Below are positions 2,551 to 43,057 of a DNA stretch of 64,000 nt, piece by piece (the stretch's first letter is position 1; every line of letters begins with the position of its first letter). The notes below the pieces were generated by a model. That model was not told the DNA's origin. It worked only from the letters and a program-made list of their open reading frames with translations, and made no database searches. Location: contig CP112999.1 in assembly GCA_026625165.1 (NCBI GenBank), positions 1,864,741 to 1,928,740 on the forward strand, given 5' to 3'. A program made the translations under genes and the position numbers. The DNA is from Methanoregula sp. (GTDB lineage: Archaea; Halobacteriota; Methanomicrobia; Methanomicrobiales; Methanospirillaceae).

Positions 2551-2669
2551 CTAATACTCCGCTAAACCCATTTAACGTCCTGAGTGCAAACCTTTACACG
2601 GCCTCGCAAAGTCATTGGTTTGACTCTCAGCCCTTCCCTCGTGATTCACATCCCGAGGTGCATCAAATC

Positions 2670-2724
2670 AGCTCTATGGGGATTCGAACCCAATCTCTTT
2701 CGCCCCATTTCCGGCGGTAGAGCT
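2670..2724 (-). pseudogene. tRNA-like remnant in the 16S-23S spacer
   Basis: The minus strand holds a 55-base tRNA-like fold where archaeal rRNA operons usually carry tRNA-Ala. A 7-bp acceptor-like stem pairs AGCTCTA (2718-2724) with TAGAGCT (2670-2676). A T-arm with a TTCGAAT loop lies at 2677-2693 (one mismatch in the stem), and a single short stem-loop CGCC/GGCG takes the place of the D- and anticodon arms. There is no recognisable D-arm, no normal 7-base anticodon loop and no encoded CCA. It is too short for a canonical tRNA. Most likely this is a decayed tRNA-Ala kept as a structural spacer element; a non-canonical minimal tRNA is much less likely. Confidence 0.5.
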
Positions 2725-2755
2725 TTTCTCATTGTTGACACCAGCAATTTTACAG

Positions 2756-2790
2756 TTTGTTTAGTAACCGCGTTCCCGAAATAAAATTCG
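2756..2790 (-). other. 16S processing stem, 3' half, with bulge-helix-bulge
   Basis: Bases 2756-2771 are exactly complementary (16 of 16) to 4309-4324 on the other side of 16S. Next to this stem, 3-base unpaired stretches (2772-2774 and 2781-2783, facing 4306-4308 and 4296-4298) flank a short helix CCGAA/TTCGG (2776-2780 with 4299-4303). This is the bulge-helix-bulge architecture cut by the archaeal tRNA-splicing endonuclease to release pre-16S. Confidence 0.85.
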
Positions 2791-4290: not shown

Positions 4291-4324
4291 GAACTTTATT
4301 CGGAATTAGCGGTTACTAAACAAA
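4291..4324 (-). other. 16S processing stem, 5' half
   Basis: Partner of 2756-2790. GCGGTTACTAAACAAA at 4309-4324 pairs perfectly with the 3' flank, followed by the bulge-helix-bulge (TTA bulges at 4306-4308 and 4296-4298 around TTCGG). Confidence 0.85.
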
Positions 4325-4349
4325 TTTCCGCATTGCCAGTATCAACGTC

Positions 4350-14097: not shown

Positions 14098-14891
14098 ACA
14101 AGATCACGGTCGGGGGAACCGCGCCTGTCCGGATCATGGGCGTGATCAACTGCAGCATGGAGTCGTTCTACCCGAATTCATATGTCCCGATGGGATCCAT
14201 CCACGCAAAGGCAGTCGAGATGGTGGAGCAGGGTGCCGCAATTATCGATGTCGGCGCACGCAGCACCGCACCCAATGTCCAGCAGATCAGCGGGAAAGAA
14301 GAGGCAACGCGGATCGATGAAGCGCTTAAGGAACTGGACGGGAGCGGGATCACCGTATCTGTTGACACCATGCACCCGGGCGTGCTCGCGGTCTGCCTGA
14401 AACATGATGTCCACCTTGTCAATGACATCGGCGGGTTTGCATCTGAAACATACGCAAAGATGGTCGCGGAGTCCCGGTTACCCGCCGTACTGATGGCATC
14501 GGTTTCGCGGCCGGGTGATGCTGTTGGCGTGGAGGCAACAATCCATGCCCTCTCCATTGTAAAACAACGCTGTGAACATGCCGGTGTCACGGACTATATC
14601 CTTGACCCCGGTATCGGGATCTGGACACCCCTGCGTTCTGTCGAGGATGACTGGCAGCTCTGTACCCGGTTCGATGAGTTCCAGCGGTTTGACCGCCCCC
14701 TGCTTGCCGCCATCTCCCGTAAGACATTCATCGGCACCCTCCTTGACAAATACCCGGAGGACCGGTTGTACGGTTCCCTTGCCGTCACCATGATGCTTCT
14801 TTTGAAAGGTGCGTCGCTTGTCCGCACCCATGACGTGGTAGCCACTGCCGATGTCGTGAAGGTCTGTGATCGGATGGTGAAGGGGGCGTGA
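14079..14891 (+). CDS. dihydropteroate synthase family protein
   Basis: A 270-residue TIM-barrel protein of the DHPS family. Motifs are recognisable but divergent: [14 protein letters not shown] for the usual GILNxTPDSF, DVGARSTAP for DIGGESTRP, VSVDT, and SRKTFIG near the end. In methanogens, DHPS homologues have been linked to tetrahydromethanopterin synthesis. With folD and glyA beside it, a folate role is equally possible. It overlaps folD by 19 bases and cofE by 4 (GTGA). The family call is firm; the substrate is open. Confidence 0.85.
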
Positions 14892-15685
14892 ACCCCTCTT
14901 TTGCTGTCTTTGGGCTTGCAACCGGGCTGATCACACCGGGCGATGATGTTGCTGAACGGATCGTTGCCGTTGCGAAAGCCTCGGAATGCTCAGGTATTGT
15001 GGACGGGGACATCCTGGTGCTCGCCGAATCGATGGTCGCAACTGCGGAGGGGAGAGTTGTCAGCCTCTCTGCCGTAACCCCATCACTGCAGGCAGTAGAA
15101 CTGGCAAAAACCTATGAAATGGACCCCTGCACTGCAGAGGTCGTGCTGCGGGAGAGCGACGAAGTTGTCGGGGGGATTCCGCACTTCCTGCTCTGCATGA
15201 CTAACGGCACCCTGCTCCCCAATGCCGGTGTCGATGGTTCCAATGCCCCGCCCGGATGCCTTGTTCCGCTACCGGAAGACCCCGATGCGAGTGCGGTGCG
15301 GATCCGCAAATCAGTCGAACAGCGGTGCAATGCAAAGGTCGCCGTGATCATCGCCGACAGCCGCACCCATGCAATGCGTTCCGGCTGCAGCGGTGTCGCG
15401 ATAGGGTGTGCCGGCATTGTTTCTGTGATAGATGACCGGGGCAGGAGCGACCTGTACGGCAGGAAACTCGAAGTAACAAAACGAGCGGTTGCCGATAACA
15501 TCGCATCCGCTGCGGAACTGGTCATGGGTGAAGCAGACGAGGGAATGCCGGCGGCAATCGTGCGGGGACTGGGACTTCCCATCTCAGATGACGCTGTCGG
15601 TGTTGAGTCGATCAATGCGGACGAGTGTTTGTTTATGGGGTTGCTCCAAAAGAGACCAAATGAGAAAGAGAGTTTTCTGAATTGA
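14888..15685 (+). CDS. cofE: coenzyme F420-0:L-glutamate ligase-like protein
   Basis: A 265-residue protein resembling CofE, which adds gamma-linked glutamates to F420-0 with GTP. Supporting features are the N-terminal GLITPGDDVAERI, DGDILVLAESMVATAEGR, GVDGSNAPPG and ADSRTHAMRSGCSGVAIG, with the metal/substrate loops in family order. The GTG start overlaps the upstream stop (GTGA), so expression is coupled. With cofC and cofG nearby, three F420 genes lie within about 8 kb. Confidence 0.87.
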   Translation: MNPSFAVFGLATGLITPGDDVAERIVAVAKASECSGIVDGDILVLAESMVATAEGRVVSLSAVTPSLQAVELAKTYEMDPCTAEVVLRESDEVVGGIPHFLLCMTNGTLLPNAGVDGSNAPPGCLVPLPEDPDASAVRIRKSVEQRCNAKVAVIIADSRTHAMRSGCSGVAIGCAGIVSVIDDRGRSDLYGRKLEVTKRAVADNIASAAELVMGEADEGMPAAIVRGLGLPISDDAVGVESINADECLFMGLLQKRPNEKESFLN

Positions 15686-15860: not shown

Positions 15861-17216
15861 TTAATTATCCTCATCGGTTTTTTTAATGTCGCTTGCGATG
15901 TAAATTTCAATCGTTTTTACAAGAGTATCAAGATGTTTTTCCAATGGAGGTGTTATTGCATCGAGCCAGTGCGGGATACCAATAAGATATTCCATTGATT
16001 TTGTGGGTTCTACATTTTCAATTCTGAAGGGAATAATAATCAACTCGTTCTTGACTGCAGTTGTAAGTTCCCGCAATACGTGCTGGGATTTGTTCGAATG
16101 TGATGAGAAGATCAATACCATTATCCTGCTTCCTTCAATTCCCCGAACAATTGCCTCAGGGAAATTTTTCCCGGGAGGTACATCCCGTGGCGCAATCCAG
16201 CACCTGATATTCCGGGACTCAATTTTTGCACATGCAGCATCTGCAACCGGTTTGTTCACCTGCGCATAACTGATAAAGACATCGTGGTGGGATTTTGCCG
16301 GGGGGGAACCGGGTACAGTGGAGGCTGAAACCGGTGGGTGAGGGAGTGTCACTGGAGTTTTTTGCTTATGGTTCCTATATGCATATATTCCCCCGCCAAG
16401 AGCAATTACAAGCATGACAATAACCAGCGGCAAAAACAACGCTCGAAGGTTGGGCACGGGAGGGGTTACATCCTGGGAAGCCGTTCCAGCCATGGGCTGA
16501 GCTGTTGAACCTGAGATTGTGACAGGCACGGCGGTCTTCTTGGGGTTTGTGCTATTCGGGAGCAGGTACGAGATGATGATCTGCCTGTTGTCTGCTGCCA
16601 TCTCGAGATTCGGATCGAGCGAAAGGGCTTTGTCATAAGCTGCCAGCGCTTCCTTGTATTTTCCAAGGTTCTGCAGTGCATAGCCTTTGTTCCCCCAGGA
16701 TTTTGCATAGGATGGGTTGATGGAAATCGACATGTCAGCAGCATCAATAGCATCCTGGTACCGGTTGAGTTTTGAAAGTGAAACGGCCTTAAGATCCCAG
16801 CCGGTGTAACTGTTGGGGTCAAGGGAAATTGCTTTTTGTGCAGCATCAAGACCGTCCTTGTGTCGTCCCAGTGAATTAAGAATAGCAGATTTCATTACCC
16901 ATGCATTGATAAAATCCGGGTCAATCGATAAGGCTTTTTCACAAGCATCGAGTGCCTCCTGGTCCCGGTTAAGGTTCTTCAGTGCATTTGCCTTATTGAG
17001 CCATGCATTTTTATTGCCGGAATCAATGGCGAGCGCTTTTTCCGCGGCATCAAGAGACTCGTCCCATCTTCCGGAGTTTGCAAATGATTTGCTTGCCTGC
17101 ACCCAGTAAACTGCAGTCTCAGCACAGGCATGCGGGACAAGGGCAGACAATATCAGAAAAAGGACAAGGAGGCGGGTTGACTGCAGCCCCGTCCCGCAGT
17201 TTTGAAGAGTCATCAC
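15861..17216 (-). CDS. membrane TPR protein with cytoplasmic TIR domain
   Basis: A 451-residue protein. A signal peptide spans 1-32 (LLVLFLILSALVPHACA). About five TPR units of 34 residues cover 36-205 (repeating ALxIDPxNxxAWxxKAxAL). A Thr/Pro/Ser linker is followed by one TM helix at 259-280 and a basic stop-transfer (RNHKQK). A TIR domain spans 309-438: HDVFISYA, the BB-loop-like CWIAPRDVPPG, and VLRELTTAV, whose E383 aligns with the catalytic glutamate of NAD-cleaving TIRs. Predicted topology puts the TPR solenoid outside and the TIR inside. It is a single gene with its own promoter. It could be a cell-surface sensor or an immune effector. Confidence 0.85.
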   Translation of the reverse strand: MMTLQNCGTGLQSTRLLVLFLILSALVPHACAETAVYWVQASKSFANSGRWDESLDAAEKALAIDSGNKNAWLNKANALKNLNRDQEALDACEKALSIDPDFINAWVMKSAILNSLGRHKDGLDAAQKAISLDPNSYTGWDLKAVSLSKLNRYQDAIDAADMSISINPSYAKSWGNKGYALQNLGKYKEALAAYDKALSLDPNLEMAADNRQIIISYLLPNSTNPKKTAVPVTISGSTAQPMAGTASQDVTPPVPNLRALFLPLVIVMLVIALGGGIYAYRNHKQKTPVTLPHPPVSASTVPGSPPAKSHHDVFISYAQVNKPVADAACAKIESRNIRCWIAPRDVPPGKNFPEAIVRGIEGSRIMVLIFSSHSNKSQHVLRELTTAVKNELIIIPFRIENVEPTKSMEYLIGIPHWLDAITPPLEKHLDTLVKTIEIYIASDIKKTDEDN

Positions 17217-17453: not shown

Positions 17454-18671
17454 ATGCCTGTTATGAGTGAAGACCCCGCAGCCCGGAAATCAAAAGCGTA
17501 CCGGCTCATCATCCTCTTTGGCATCGTTGCCATGCTCGGAGATGTCGTGTATGAAGGGGGACGGAGCGTTGCCGGCCCGTTCCTCTTCACGCTGGGCGCG
17601 TCTGCCTTTACCGTTGCGTTCGTTGCCGGGTTCGGTGAATTTGCAGGATACGCGATCCGTATTGCCACGGGATATCTCGCGGACAAGTCAAAGCAGTACT
17701 GGGCATTTGTGATCGCCGGCTACCTGATGATCGGGGCGATCCCGCTCCTCGTGTGGGCCGGCAACTGGGAGATCGCGGCACTCCTGCTCATCGCAGAGCG
17801 GATCGGAAAGGCCCTCCGTTCACCTTCAAAGGATGCAATACTGTCGCATGCTACCTCAGCGGTAGGGAGGGGGTGGGGCTTTGGTCTCCATGAGGCGCTT
17901 GACCAGATCGGCGCTGTTGCCGGGCCGATGCTCTTTGTGCTCGCCCTTGCAACTGGAGGGGGATACAGGGGCGGGTTTGGACTTCTTGCCATCCCGTTTG
18001 CACTTCTTCTCGTTGCGTTACTCATTGCATGGAGGAGCATGCCGGATCCTGCCGCATTCGAACCTGCAGCCGGTTCCGTACCCGGTGAGAGAAAAAGAAA
18101 GGGCAGCTCGCGCCAGATCCGGCTGTATGCAGTCTTTACTGCGCTGACAATGGCGGGATTTGTGGTCTTTCCCCTGCTCGCGTTCCATTTCAAGGCACTT
18201 TCGATCGTGTCCGATGCAGAGATCCCTGCGTTCTACGCGATCGCCATGGCGGTCGATGCCATCGTGGCACTCGGTGCCGGCAGGGCGTACGACCGGTACG
18301 GGCTCGCAGTGCTCGGGGCAATCCCGGTTGTCGGCCTTGCCATCCCGCTTATCGTGTTCTTTCCATTATATAGTGCAGCACTGGCCGGTGCGGTGCTCTG
18401 GGGTGCTTCCATGGGTATGCAGGAGACGGTGCTCCGCGCTGCAGTCGCTGATTTTACGCCACCGGGTGGCCGGGGATTTGCCTACGGTGTCTTCAACACG
18501 ATCTATGGCGGCTCATGGTTTGCCGGCAGTCTTGTCATCGGGGCATTGTATGAATTCAACATCAGCTATGCCGCTGCCTTCATGGTCGTCATGCAGTGTG
18601 CTGCGCTCCCGGTCCTGTGGCAGGTGGCAAAAACACAGAAAAACCTGTCAGAGCAAGAGCCGGACCGGTAA
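17454..18671 (+). CDS. MFS transporter
   Basis: A 405-residue integral membrane protein with about 12 hydrophobic segments in two halves joined by a charged loop near residues 200-225 (PGERKRKGSS). The loop between helices 2 and 3 has the MFS-like GYLADKSKQYW. The substrate cannot be read from sequence. The start is ATG 17454 or the second ATG at 17463. It is divergent from the TIR gene and convergent with RNase III, so probably a single-gene unit. Confidence 0.88.
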   Translation: MPVMSEDPAARKSKAYRLIILFGIVAMLGDVVYEGGRSVAGPFLFTLGASAFTVAFVAGFGEFAGYAIRIATGYLADKSKQYWAFVIAGYLMIGAIPLLVWAGNWEIAALLLIAERIGKALRSPSKDAILSHATSAVGRGWGFGLHEALDQIGAVAGPMLFVLALATGGGYRGGFGLLAIPFALLLVALLIAWRSMPDPAAFEPAAGSVPGERKRKGSSRQIRLYAVFTALTMAGFVVFPLLAFHFKALSIVSDAEIPAFYAIAMAVDAIVALGAGRAYDRYGLAVLGAIPVVGLAIPLIVFFPLYSAALAGAVLWGASMGMQETVLRAAVADFTPPGGRGFAYGVFNTIYGGSWFAGSLVIGALYEFNISYAAAFMVVMQCAALPVLWQVAKTQKNLSEQEPDR

Positions 18672-18672
18672 A

Positions 18673-19269
18673 CTATACGGGTTTAGCCGCGAGGTGTTCC
18701 AGCGCAAGGCGGGCGGCTTCCTGCTTTGCACCTGTTTTATTTCCGCCACTTCCTACACCGCACCGCCCGTCGGCAAGCGCGACCTGAAACGTAAATGTCG
18801 GCTTGTGAGGGGGGCCGTCAGAACGTATCAATTCATACTGAGGGGGAGCATCTCCATGCCTCTGAAAATATTCCTGAAGGATGCCGATATAATTTCGTTC
18901 AGGATCGAATCGATCGATCTCCTCTGACATCAGCATCAGAACAGATTCTTTCACCCTTAAGATCCCCTCGGAAAGATAAAGCATGCCGATCCATGCCTCA
19001 AAATCATCTGATGTGACAGCTGTGACCTGCCCCCGCCTATGCAATAAAAAACCAGGAGAACATTTGTCAATAAACGGCCTGAAATCCGGCACAATCATGT
19101 CGAGATATGCATTTGAAACCACCACCATCCTCTTTGTCATCTCCCCTTCCGAGAGTGTGGGATAATTCCGGTAGAGGTACTCGGAGATAATAAGGTTAAG
19201 GACGCGATCTCCGAGGAACTCCAGTCGCTCAAAATCCGGCCCGGTATTGTTGCCTGAATCCATATCCAT
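18673..19269 (-). CDS. rnc: ribonuclease III
   Basis: A double-strand-specific endoribonuclease of 198 residues. The RNase III signature ERLEFLGDRVL carries E14, E17 and D21 (equivalents of E. coli E38, E41 and D45). The second metal site D88-E91 lies in DDFEAWIGMLYL. A double-stranded RNA-binding domain follows at about 126-193 (ending KTGAKQEAARLALEHL). All catalytic acids are present, but the first helix normally preceding the signature is missing: only 13 residues precede it, and an in-frame TAA sits 6 bases before the ATG. RNase III is rare in archaea. It lies 24 bases behind cofC on the same strand. Confidence 0.9.
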   Translation of the reverse strand: MDMDSGNNTGPDFERLEFLGDRVLNLIISEYLYRNYPTLSEGEMTKRMVVVSNAYLDMIVPDFRPFIDKCSPGFLLHRRGQVTAVTSDDFEAWIGMLYLSEGILRVKESVLMLMSEEIDRFDPERNYIGILQEYFQRHGDAPPQYELIRSDGPPHKPTFTFQVALADGRCGVGSGGNKTGAKQEAARLALEHLAAKPV

Positions 19270-19293
19270 TTCCGGTTAAGATTGCATCTACTT

Positions 19294-20027: not shown

Positions 20028-20798
20028 TCAGGTGCGGACAGGGCCGGTTCCTATCCGTATACGCTCTGCAGGGATCCGTATCTCAAAACACGCACCGGCT
20101 CCTGCGGTGCCCGTCTCCTTAATAGTCATGCCGTTTGCCGCAAGGATGTCGCGGGCGACAAAGAGACCCCATCCCGTATATTTCCCGAAGCCTTTGTCAA
20201 AGATTTTCTCTTTATCTCCGTCATGCACCCCGACACCGTCATCTTCGATACATAGCACTGCATCCTGACCGTTCTGCCGGAGCCGGATCTGAATTCCGGT
20301 CGTGCTCTTCCCATGCCTGGCCGCGTTGTCAAAGAGATACACAAGAACTTTTACAAAGAGGGGGGCAGCAAATACCGAGCAGGCATCCACGTCCGACCGG
20401 ATCGCGACGTTACCAGTATCCACCTCATCCCGGGCAAACCTGATCAGCATCCCGAAATTCTGCCAGACGGGCGGTTCAAGTCCGATACTCTGGTATACTT
20501 TCGAGTACGCAAAGATCCGCCGCATCTTTTCTGATGACCTGCGTTCGATCTCAAGGAAATTCTGTTGTTCCTTATCCTGCACCATGGTGCCCAGAAGCTC
20601 GTTATAGCCCATAATCGCGGTGAGCTGGTTAAGCGCATCGTGCCGGGTGACACTGCCTACGATCTCCAGTTTCTTTTCCGCAAGTGCAAGTGCCCGCAGA
20701 AGGTCTTCACGATCCGGCTCGCCGGAGCCAGACGTTGCACTCGGTTCATCATATCTTGTCGGATTCCGGGAGTCGGGAAGGTTCGGAGACATGTTCAC
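20028..20798 (-). CDS. soluble sensor histidine kinase
   Basis: A 256-residue kinase without membrane segments or a sensory domain. The phospho-acceptor histidine H53 sits in SVTRHDALNQLTAIMGY. The ATPase domain has the N-box LFDNAARHG, G1 EDDGVGV and G2 GWGLFVARDIL. The same H-box type is in the PAS kinase at 43100-44911. No response regulator is adjacent. The first 30 residues are polar and probably disordered. The signal and partner are unknown. Confidence 0.85.
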   Translation of the reverse strand: MNMSPNLPDSRNPTRYDEPSATSGSGEPDREDLLRALALAEKKLEIVGSVTRHDALNQLTAIMGYNELLGTMVQDKEQQNFLEIERRSSEKMRRIFAYSKVYQSIGLEPPVWQNFGMLIRFARDEVDTGNVAIRSDVDACSVFAAPLFVKVLVYLFDNAARHGKSTTGIQIRLRQNGQDAVLCIEDDGVGVHDGDKEKIFDKGFGKYTGWGLFVARDILAANGMTIKETGTAGAGACFEIRIPAERIRIGTGPVRT

Positions 20799-20887: not shown

Positions 20888-21156
20888 GGCTCTGTAGAAA
20901 TCATCGTTTTTCATAACGTTCTTGGGGGTGTTTGCCGTTCCCTGCAGGGAAGGGCAAACTGAAGAAGATGTCCCGATGGACATCTTCGAGTTACATTGCC
21001 CCCGCCACTGCGGCACTTAAAAAAAGGTCTGACGACCATTTTTACGAGTCCGCCATCCTTTAAGGATAGCAGACATCCCCCCTTACGATATCCGTCGAAA
21101 ACCGGTTCATCATGGGTCTTTGATAATGAGGTGAGATCAGGGATTTCTACAGAGCC
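20888..21156. mobile_element. MITE-like element with 15-bp terminal inverted repeats
   Basis: GGCTCTGTAGAAATC at 20888-20902 is repeated exactly in inverted orientation at 21142-21156, bounding 269 bases without a transposase. The flanking 8 bases are GATGAATA on the left and GATAAATA on the right, a target-site-duplication-like match of 7 of 8. Inside are hairpins: GTTTGCC/GGCAAAC (20930-20959), a perfect 10-bp GAAGATGTCC/GGACATCTTC (20964-20987) and ATCCTTTAAGGAT (21056-21068). Such terminal repeats are typical of IS elements, so this looks like a non-autonomous derivative inserted ahead of cofG. Confidence 0.6.
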
Positions 21157-21280
21157 GATAAATAAAAAAATGGCTTTTTGGAAAGGCGCCTCCGGAAATT
21201 TCGGCCTGATATCCGGCAGAAAAAGAACTATTGCACGGCAGATCAAAAACTACCGGGGCCAAAAGCTGCGTGATACTCCC

Positions 21281-22267
21281 ATGGCGCACCGCACCATAAC
21301 CTATTCCCGAAATATATTTCTCCCGCTCACCACCGTCTGCCGGAACCGGTGCGGGTACTGCTGCTTCCGGACACCGGTACAGGACGGGTGCCTGCTTGCG
21401 CCGGAGGTTGTGGAAGAGACGATAAAAAAAGGGGCTGTGCTGGGGTGCACCGAGGCTCTTTTTACCTTTGGCGAACGCCCCGAACTGGAGCCCGGGTTCA
21501 TCCCCTGTCTCCAAAAGGCCGGGTACGGGAGGTTCCTTGACTATGTGTACGAAATGTGCAGGAAGTCTATTCATTACGGTTTGCTCCCTCACACCAATGC
21601 CGGCATCCTGACGTATAATGAGATGGACAGGCTCCGTGAAGTGAACGCAAGCATGGGGATCATGCTCGAGACCACTGCTGATGTCCCCGCCCACCATAAC
21701 TCCCCGGGAAAAAAACCGGAAGTCCGGATTGAAATGATGGAGGATGCCGGAAGGCTTAAGATTCCGTTTACCACCGGGCTCCTGCTGGGCATCGGTGAGA
21801 CACCGGTGGATCGGGAGGAATCCCTTGAAGTGATCCGCGCCATGCACCGGCGTTTCGGGCACATTCAGGAAGTGATCATCCAGAATTTCTGCCCCAAGCC
21901 CGGAACGCCGATGGAGGGCACCCCCGAACCGACAACCCGCGAGATCTGCGCAACCATCAGGCAGGCCCGCGAGATCCTCCCCCGCGATATCGCCATCCAG
22001 ATCCCCCCCAACCTGATCGATGCGCAGGCGCTCATCCCCTGCGGGGTGGATGACCTTGGGGGCGTCTCCCCGCTCACGATCGATTACGTGAACCCGGAGC
22101 ACCCGTGGCCGGAGATCGGCCGGCTCAAAGAAATTGTCGGCGACGCGGAACTCAAAGAGCGCCTATGCATCTACCCGCACTTCATCGAGCGTGGGTGGTA
22201 CCCCCCTGTCCTGCAACCCCTAATAAACAGGCTCGCACATACATTAGATAAGAGGAAAAATCCGTGA
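21281..22267 (+). CDS. cofG: 7,8-didemethyl-8-hydroxy-5-deazariboflavin synthase subunit CofG
   Basis: A radical SAM enzyme that, with CofH, builds the deazaflavin chromophore (Fo) of F420. The CxxxCxxC cluster motif is in VCRNRCGYCCF near the N-terminus, followed by GCTEALFTFGERPE and the CofG-like IQNFCPKPGTPM. ATG 21281 (MAHRTITYSRNIF) gives 328 residues, the family size. The frame stays open upstream to 20996, but that part crosses the MITE-like element. The end overlaps purC by four bases (GTGA). Confidence 0.94.
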   Translation: MAHRTITYSRNIFLPLTTVCRNRCGYCCFRTPVQDGCLLAPEVVEETIKKGAVLGCTEALFTFGERPELEPGFIPCLQKAGYGRFLDYVYEMCRKSIHYGLLPHTNAGILTYNEMDRLREVNASMGIMLETTADVPAHHNSPGKKPEVRIEMMEDAGRLKIPFTTGLLLGIGETPVDREESLEVIRAMHRRFGHIQEVIIQNFCPKPGTPMEGTPEPTTREICATIRQAREILPRDIAIQIPPNLIDAQALIPCGVDDLGGVSPLTIDYVNPEHPWPEIGRLKEIVGDAELKERLCIYPHFIERGWYPPVLQPLINRLAHTLDKRKNP

Positions 22268-25763: not shown

Positions 25764-26050
25764 TTCGAAGAACTCTGATGAGTTCTTCTCCAGTCTCACC
25801 ACTTCGTGGTTCGACAATTCAAAGATTCTTTTAGAATATTCTCGTGTCTTATCTCTCCGATATTCGGCAATTCGAAGAACTCTGATGAGTTCTTCTCCAG
25901 TCTCACCACTTCGTGGTTCGACAATTCTAAGATTCTTTTAGAATATTCTCGTGTCTCATCTCTCCGATATTCGGCAATTCGAAGAACTCTGATGAGTTCT
26001 TCTCCAGTCTCACCACTTCGTGGTTCGACAATTCAAAGAACCTGCGGGTT
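25764..26050. repeat. 107-bp tandem repeat array of hairpins, about 2.7 copies
   Basis: Units begin at 25764, 25871 and 25978, an exact 107-base period. Each unit holds a perfect 9-bp hairpin GAAGAACTC-TGAT-GAGTTCTTC (first copy 25767-25788), a 5-bp hairpin ACCAC-TTC-GTGGT (25798-25810) and a weaker ATTCT/AGAAT hairpin. The last copy breaks off and ends in AAGAACC-TGCG-GGTTCTT. The units are almost identical, pointing to recent amplification. No protein is encoded. The array fills the gap upstream of the UbiB-like gene and downstream of the methyltransferase. Confidence 0.9.
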
Positions 26051-42977: not shown

Positions 42978-43057
42978 GAAGATTTTCATCAGAAAATCTT
43001 CGCTGTGTCGAACCCCCCTCGGGGGTGAGCTTGAGAAGATTTCCGAAGGAATTCTTC
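42978..43057. repeat. cluster of three intergenic hairpins
   Basis: A perfect 10-bp stem GAAGATTTTC/GAAAATCTTC (42978-43001), then ACCCCC/GGGGGT (43012-43026), then GAAGATTTCC/GGAATTCTTC with one mismatch (43035-43057). The first and third belong to the GAAGA...TCTTC family also seen at 5776, 20964 and 25767. They lie downstream of the PAS kinase and upstream of the tRNA-Ser promoter, and might also terminate transcription. Confidence 0.75.

What the first reader, a model, noticed from the sequence alone, without database searches (positions are those of the whole stretch)
18673..19269. RNase III in an archaeon, shorter at the N-terminus than usual
The ERLEFLGDRVL signature, all catalytic acids (E14, E17, D21, D88, E91) and a dsRBD are present, although RNase III is uncommon in archaea. 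The first helix of the nuclease domain is missing and an in-frame stop sits 6 bases before the ATG. It may come from bacterial transfer, now placed behind cofC. Its targets, perhaps the many long hairpins in this window, would be of interest.
Basis: partly seen in the sequence, partly recalled or inferred. Interest (0 to 1): 0.65.

Follow-up and report, generated by a model that had tools for sequence, protein, structure and literature searches.

The report
Short RNase III in a methanogen
A methane-making archaeon carries a genuine but front-shortened copy of RNase III, the enzyme that cuts double-stranded RNA; the enzyme proves to be nearly universal in this archaeal order rather than a rare import, and the shortened form has persisted in three genomes while its cutting residues stayed largely intact.

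Summary
The ORF is real: 198 aa, complete RNase III domain from the signature helix onward, complete dsRBD, all catalytic acids, no helices α1–α2. The N-terminus is not lost to a frameshift: only 24 nt separate it from an intact cofC. An independent genome (G003) has the same short form behind cofC, and a third (G129) has a short form elsewhere.

RNase III domains occur in 152 of 159 genomes of this order, and the dsRBD-bearing type forms one clade in it, with family labels changing the minimum number of times. The position behind cofC is an old, shared locus.

What is new: neighbouring genes make G005 the window's nearest relative, yet the RNase III tree rejects that pairing (AU p = 3e-5) and joins the window with G003. 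The long cofC-linked forms have all lost Asp107, and most Glu37; the window and G003 kept all six acids. I infer a working short RNase III that replaced, or outlived, a long form at one locus.

Its targets are probably antisense dsRNA, not pre-rRNA: both rRNA stems keep bulge-helix-bulge motifs, EndA is present, Cas9 absent. The window has no long hairpins. No activity is shown.

The parts
18673..19269 (-). short-form RNase III, 198 aa (RNase III domain without α1-α2, plus dsRBD)
19198..19230 (-). signature ERLEFLGDRVL (residues 14-24), with E14, E17, D21
   Evidence: sequence; alignment to Aquifex and E. coli RNase III
18997..19008 (-). second acid pair D88..E91 (DDFE)
   Evidence: alignment
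18964..19230 (-). RNase III catalytic domain (residues 14-102)
   Evidence: Pfam PF00636 1-102/102
18691..18891 (-). double-stranded RNA-binding domain (residues 127-193)
   Evidence: Pfam PF00035 1-66/66
19270..19293 (-). 24-nt cofC/RNase III junction with two further in-frame stops; no room for the missing helices
19294..19929 (-). cofC (2-phospho-L-lactate guanylyltransferase), intact C-terminus; conserved upstream neighbour
   Evidence: Pfam PF01983; synteny
20028..20798 (-). histidine-kinase-like protein, conserved in the locus
20996..22267 (+). cofG-like radical-SAM gene (start of the ORF is mechanical), divergent from the cofC block
   Evidence: name from established knowledge of the F420 pathway, not tested with a family model here
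17454..18671 (+). MFS transporter, convergent with RNase III; the stop codons are 1 nt apart
14888..15685 (+). cofE (F420-0 gamma-glutamyl ligase), conserved in the locus
4321..4336 (-). 5' half of the pre-16S bulge-helix-bulge (GCAAT GCGG AAA TTTG)
2744..2759 (-). 3' half of the pre-16S bulge-helix-bulge (CAAA CTGT AAA ATTGC)
2567..2584 (-). 5' half of the pre-23S bulge-helix-bulge (CTCAGGA CGTT AAA TGGG); partner lies outside the window, in L202
   Evidence: one A-A mismatch beside the core, read by eye

Best explanation
This is a functional short form of an archaeal class-I RNase III. SHOWN: the protein keeps the RNase III domain from the signature helix on, all catalytic acids and the dsRBD; it lacks α1-α2; it sits in a conserved cofG-HisK-cofC-RNase III-(MFS)-cofE locus; its family is old and nearly universal in the order; the short form also occurs in G003 (same locus) and G129 (another locus); and the window's RNase III does not follow its flanking genes. 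INFERRED: it dimerises through the signature helix, binds dsRNA with the dsRBD and makes the usual staggered two-metal cut, so α1-α2 are dispensable. The short form replaced a long form at the cofC locus, or both existed and lineages kept one or the other. Its main work is clearing sense-antisense dsRNA, perhaps including overlap of its own mRNA with the convergent MFS mRNA, rather than excising pre-rRNA.
For: Full-length Pfam domains over cut-off; all six acids kept in the window and G003 at 42-43% identity (if kept only at the average rate, about 0.43^6 = 0.006); confident fold with helices from residue 12 and best PDB hits E. coli and Aquifex RNase III; three short forms grouping when the N-terminus is left out of the tree (window+G003 98/87; with G129 94/63); window+G005, the sister by flanking genes (96/96), rejected for RNase III (p = 3e-5; genus g1 as one clade p = 2e-4); conserved locus; 152/159 prevalence; BHB motifs in both rRNA stems and EndA present, no Cas9.
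Against: No activity data. G005, the nearest genome by flanking genes, has a cofC-linked RNase III that lost E37, E40, E64 and D107, so the locus tolerates versions that look dead. G129's short form has E37K. The window and G003 branches are long, and placing the window with the long cofC-linked forms but without G003 is not rejected (p = 0.09). α1-α2 are present in the solved RNase III structures I know of (own knowledge).
Confidence: 0.68

Rival explanations
1. The short form is a decaying or repurposed RNase III that binds dsRNA through its dsRBD but no longer cuts.
For: α1-α2 are lost; G005's counterpart has lost four of six acids; the gene evolves fast (35-42% identity where cofC is 75-81%).
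Against: All six acids are kept in both the window and G003 despite 42-43% identity; ORFs are open in three genomes; the fold is predicted with confidence.
Confidence: 0.2
2. A recent bacterial RNase III gene was transferred behind cofC.
For: RNase III is near-universal in bacteria and literature credits archaeal copies to transfer (PMC5303251).
Against: Single clade of the order apart from the sampled bacteria; 152/159 prevalence; nearest relatives are archaeal, 42-46% against about 32-41% for bacterial and phage hits; locus shared by two genera.
Confidence: 0.03
3. Artefact: a frameshift or assembly error removed the first helices.
For: An in-frame stop lies 6 nt before the ATG.
Against: 24-nt junction with intact cofC and no remnant in any frame; the same structure in independent genome G003; single-contig genome, 98.8% complete.
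Confidence: 0.02
4. The enzyme's main job is pre-rRNA excision, as in bacteria.
For: A single rRNA operon has long processing stems; bacterial class-I enzymes do this.
Against: Both stems carry archaeal BHB motifs and the splicing endonuclease EndA is present, so the archaeal pathway looks intact.
Confidence: 0.1
5. As to history, nothing was replaced: an ancestral tandem pair of short and long RNase III stood behind cofC, and lineages lost one or the other. (This concerns origin and is compatible with the main functional reading.)
For: Explains the same junction in the window and G003 without transfer; the lower GC3 than cofC is not specific to short forms and so does not argue for import.
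Against: No genome seen carries both next to cofC; G129 has a short form away from cofC.
Confidence: 0.35

Closest known systems
Bacterial class-I RNase III (E. coli Rnc 7r97; Aquifex 1yyk/2nug)
   Same: Signature helix, acid set, one RNase III domain plus one dsRBD; best fold matches
   Different: Lacks α1-α2 (13 residues before the first signature Glu instead of 36-37); belongs to an archaeal clade
Long-form RNase III of the same cofC locus (Methanoregula and genus-mates)
   Same: Same locus and domain order; sister group in the trees with outgroups
   Different: They keep a diverged α1-α2 without the THRSY motif, have lost D107 (11/11) and mostly have Q at E37 (9/11); the short form is the reverse
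Mini-III and the mini-III-like paralogues of this order
   Same: RNase III domain; widespread in the same genomes
   Different: They lack the dsRBD and keep the N-terminal helices; none found in this genome
Archaeal splicing endonuclease EndA
   Same: Structure-specific RNA endonuclease; does the rRNA stem cuts in archaea (PMC8339473)
   Different: Unrelated fold and mechanism (own knowledge); present separately here

Membership tests
RNase III domain family, class-I architecture | RNase III domain with signature helix (PF00636) | tested here: met
   1-102/102, 53.3 bits, cut-off 27
RNase III domain family, class-I architecture | Catalytic acids E37/E40/D44/D107/E110 (Aquifex numbering) | tested here: met
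   E14, E17, D21, D88, E91
RNase III domain family, class-I architecture | C-terminal dsRBD | tested here: met
   PF00035 1-66/66, 60 bits, cut-off 23
RNase III domain family, class-I architecture | N-terminal helices α1-α2 with the THRSY motif (usual, but outside the PF00636 model, so I treat it as typical rather than defining) | tested here: not met
   Absent in sequence and model; two helices present in the long-form model
RNase III domain family, class-I architecture | Homodimeric Mg2+-dependent dsRNA cleavage with 2-nt 3' overhangs | not testable with these tools
   Needs biochemistry
NCBIfam TIGR02191 (RNaseIII equivalog) | Curated score 166 bits | tested here: not met
   132 bits, from model position 31; two longer archaeal relatives also fail at 134 and 141 bits; not filed under it
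Mini-III | No dsRBD | tested here: not met
   dsRBD present
Recent bacterial transfer | Nests among bacterial sequences | tested here: not met
   bacterial sampling limited to 11 rows or fewer

The most novel reading that the evidence does not exclude
The short form is a distinct working RNase III subfamily whose nuclease domain starts directly at the signature helix, showing that α1-α2 are dispensable for dimerisation and cleavage. It moves between species by replacing the long, acid-poor form at the cofC locus, so that one archaeal locus alternates between two biochemically different RNase IIIs.
Probability: 0.3. Interest if true: 0.55.

Novelty: new variant of a known kind. Interest (0 to 1): 0.42.

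Why it matters
[quoted passage not shown] Here it is near-universal in one archaeal order, beside an apparently intact EndA/bulge-helix-bulge pathway, so what archaea use RNase III for becomes a testable question free of its best-known bacterial duty. The short form would also test how much of the nuclease domain is needed. Databases may already annotate these genes; the review literature read here has not taken note.

Tried and rejected
Frameshift remnant upstream: none in three frames. Recent bacterial, plasmid or phage source: only 32-36% matches in plasmids and phages. Type II CRISPR role: no Cas9 in the genome. rRNA processing role: BHB motifs and EndA kept. Long hairpins as targets: none. 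Composition as a sign of transfer: the window's GC3 is 10 points below cofC, but long-form genes are also mostly lower; only G003 (-13) stands out, so inconclusive. Loss of D107 as proof of a dead enzyme: rejected, since Chloroflexi and Nautiliaceae RNase III also lack it. A fixed-geometry BHB scan of the 23S stem gave only chance-level hits (38 of 60 shuffles had hits) and does not allow the mismatch, so that motif rests on reading the stem by eye; the 16S motif was found exactly (3 of 60 shuffles had any hit). First family-label count mislabelled f27 rows as f2; corrected. First extraction of relatives read the wrong strand or record; corrected. cofC near RNase III in another family of the phylum (L151, L154, L195; about 1.1 kb apart) was seen but not pursued.

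Full report
OBSERVATION. The ORF at 18673-19269 (-) encodes 198 aa. Pfam matches the RNase III domain and the dsRBD over their full lengths, both over cut-off. The aligned acids E37, E40, D44, E64, D107 and E110 of Aquifex are all present. Only 13 residues precede the first signature glutamate, against 36-37 in E. coli and Aquifex. AlphaFold2 (mean pLDDT 89.6) begins with the signature helix, while a long-form relative has two helices before it, so α1 and α2 are both missing. The best solved folds are E. coli and Aquifex RNase III (TM-scores are modest, which may reflect the orientation of the dsRBD relative to the nuclease domain).

NOT A FRAMESHIFT. The upstream cofC reads to its normal C-terminus; the junction is 24 nt with in-frame stops, and no frame holds a helix remnant. 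G003, an independent genome, has the same tight cofC/short RNase III junction.

DISTRIBUTION. A Pfam search found RNase III domains in 152 of 159 genomes of the order and in 154 of 391 of a phylum sample; by my count of that table about 51 of 285 lie outside the order. The control genomes of M. jannaschii, H. volcanii and M. acetivorans, named, are not among those with an RNase III match. Two kinds exist: with dsRBD (the window's) and mini-III-like without. The window's genome has a single match, the gene in question.

PHYLOGENY. The dsRBD kind of the order forms one clade (100/97) apart from the bacteria sampled, with the minimum of four family changes for five families. Whether all archaeal RNase III are one clade is undecided (p = 0.52). 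The locus cofG-HisK-cofC-RNase III-(MFS)-cofE is conserved in the window's genus and in Methanoregula. Flanking genes pair the window with G005 (96/96) and G003 with G001 (89/91). The RNase III gene instead joins the window and G003, both short, in the trees (98/91; 98/87 with the N-terminal region left out), and rejects window+G005 (p = 3e-5) and the genus as a clade (p = 2e-4). A third short form, from G129 in the other genus and away from cofC, joins them with weaker support (94/63).

TWO FORMS. The 11 long cofC-linked proteins keep a diverged N-terminus without the THRSY motif. All lack D107 and nine have Q at E37; G005's has lost E37, E40, E64 and D107. The window's and G003's short forms lack the N-terminus but keep all six acids; G129's has K at E37 (read). 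So the short pair does not look derived from the long form, and replacement by recombination or differential loss of an ancestral pair are the two readings left.

FUNCTION. The genome has one rRNA operon, partly in the window. The 16S stem holds an exact bulge-helix-bulge (GCGG/CTGT core, AAA bulges) and the 23S stem a near-exact one with an A-A mismatch read by eye. EndA is present and Cas9 absent. Hence pre-rRNA excision and tracrRNA processing are unlikely duties. The gene is convergent with an MFS gene, the stops 1 nt apart, so overlapping mRNA ends could form dsRNA; this is inference only.

LITERATURE. [quoted passage not shown] PMC3531473 says it is lacking throughout the archaea; PMC5303251 and PMC4571572 say a few mesophilic archaea acquired it by transfer. 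The prevalence found here disagrees with the first two and extends the others. My full-text searches found no paper studying an archaeal RNase III as such, in an open-licence library only.

LIMITS. No activity data; at most 11 bacterial rows; long branches for the short forms; many relatives are incomplete draft genomes, several of them metagenome-assembled.

Noticed in passing
window 25767-26002: Three tandem intergenic repeats of about 107 bp, each with the hairpin GAAGAACTC-TGAT-GAGTTCTTC and a second small hairpin. Hairpins with the same GAAG...CTTC ends and 4-nt loops occur at 20964-20987 and 42978-43001 (five such hairpins of 9-10 bp against 0-1 in controls) and a similar one after tRNA-Cys in L202.
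   Followed up: partly
window 2670-2724 (-), between 16S and 23S: A 55-nt tRNA-like remnant with a 7-bp acceptor stem and T-arm where a spacer tRNA is often found; neither ARAGORN at the tool's settings nor Rfam calls a tRNA there.
   Followed up: partly
L173 (G005), cofC-linked RNase III: RNase III at the same locus with E37Y, E40A, E64K and D107T: probably catalytically dead but still an open ORF.
   Followed up: no
genomes of the order, e.g. L031, L118, L124: Mini-III-like proteins without dsRBD are widespread in Methanomicrobiales; role unknown.
   Followed up: partly
L151, L154, L195: In another family of the phylum, a different RNase III lies about 1.1 kb downstream of cofC; coincidence or old linkage not tested.
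   Followed up: no
window 15861-17216 (-): TPR-repeat protein with a C-terminal TIR domain, in a stretch of lower GC.
   Followed up: no
L219 (G457): Long-form cofC-linked RNase III split between two frames, i.e. broken, consistent with turnover at this locus.
   Followed up: no
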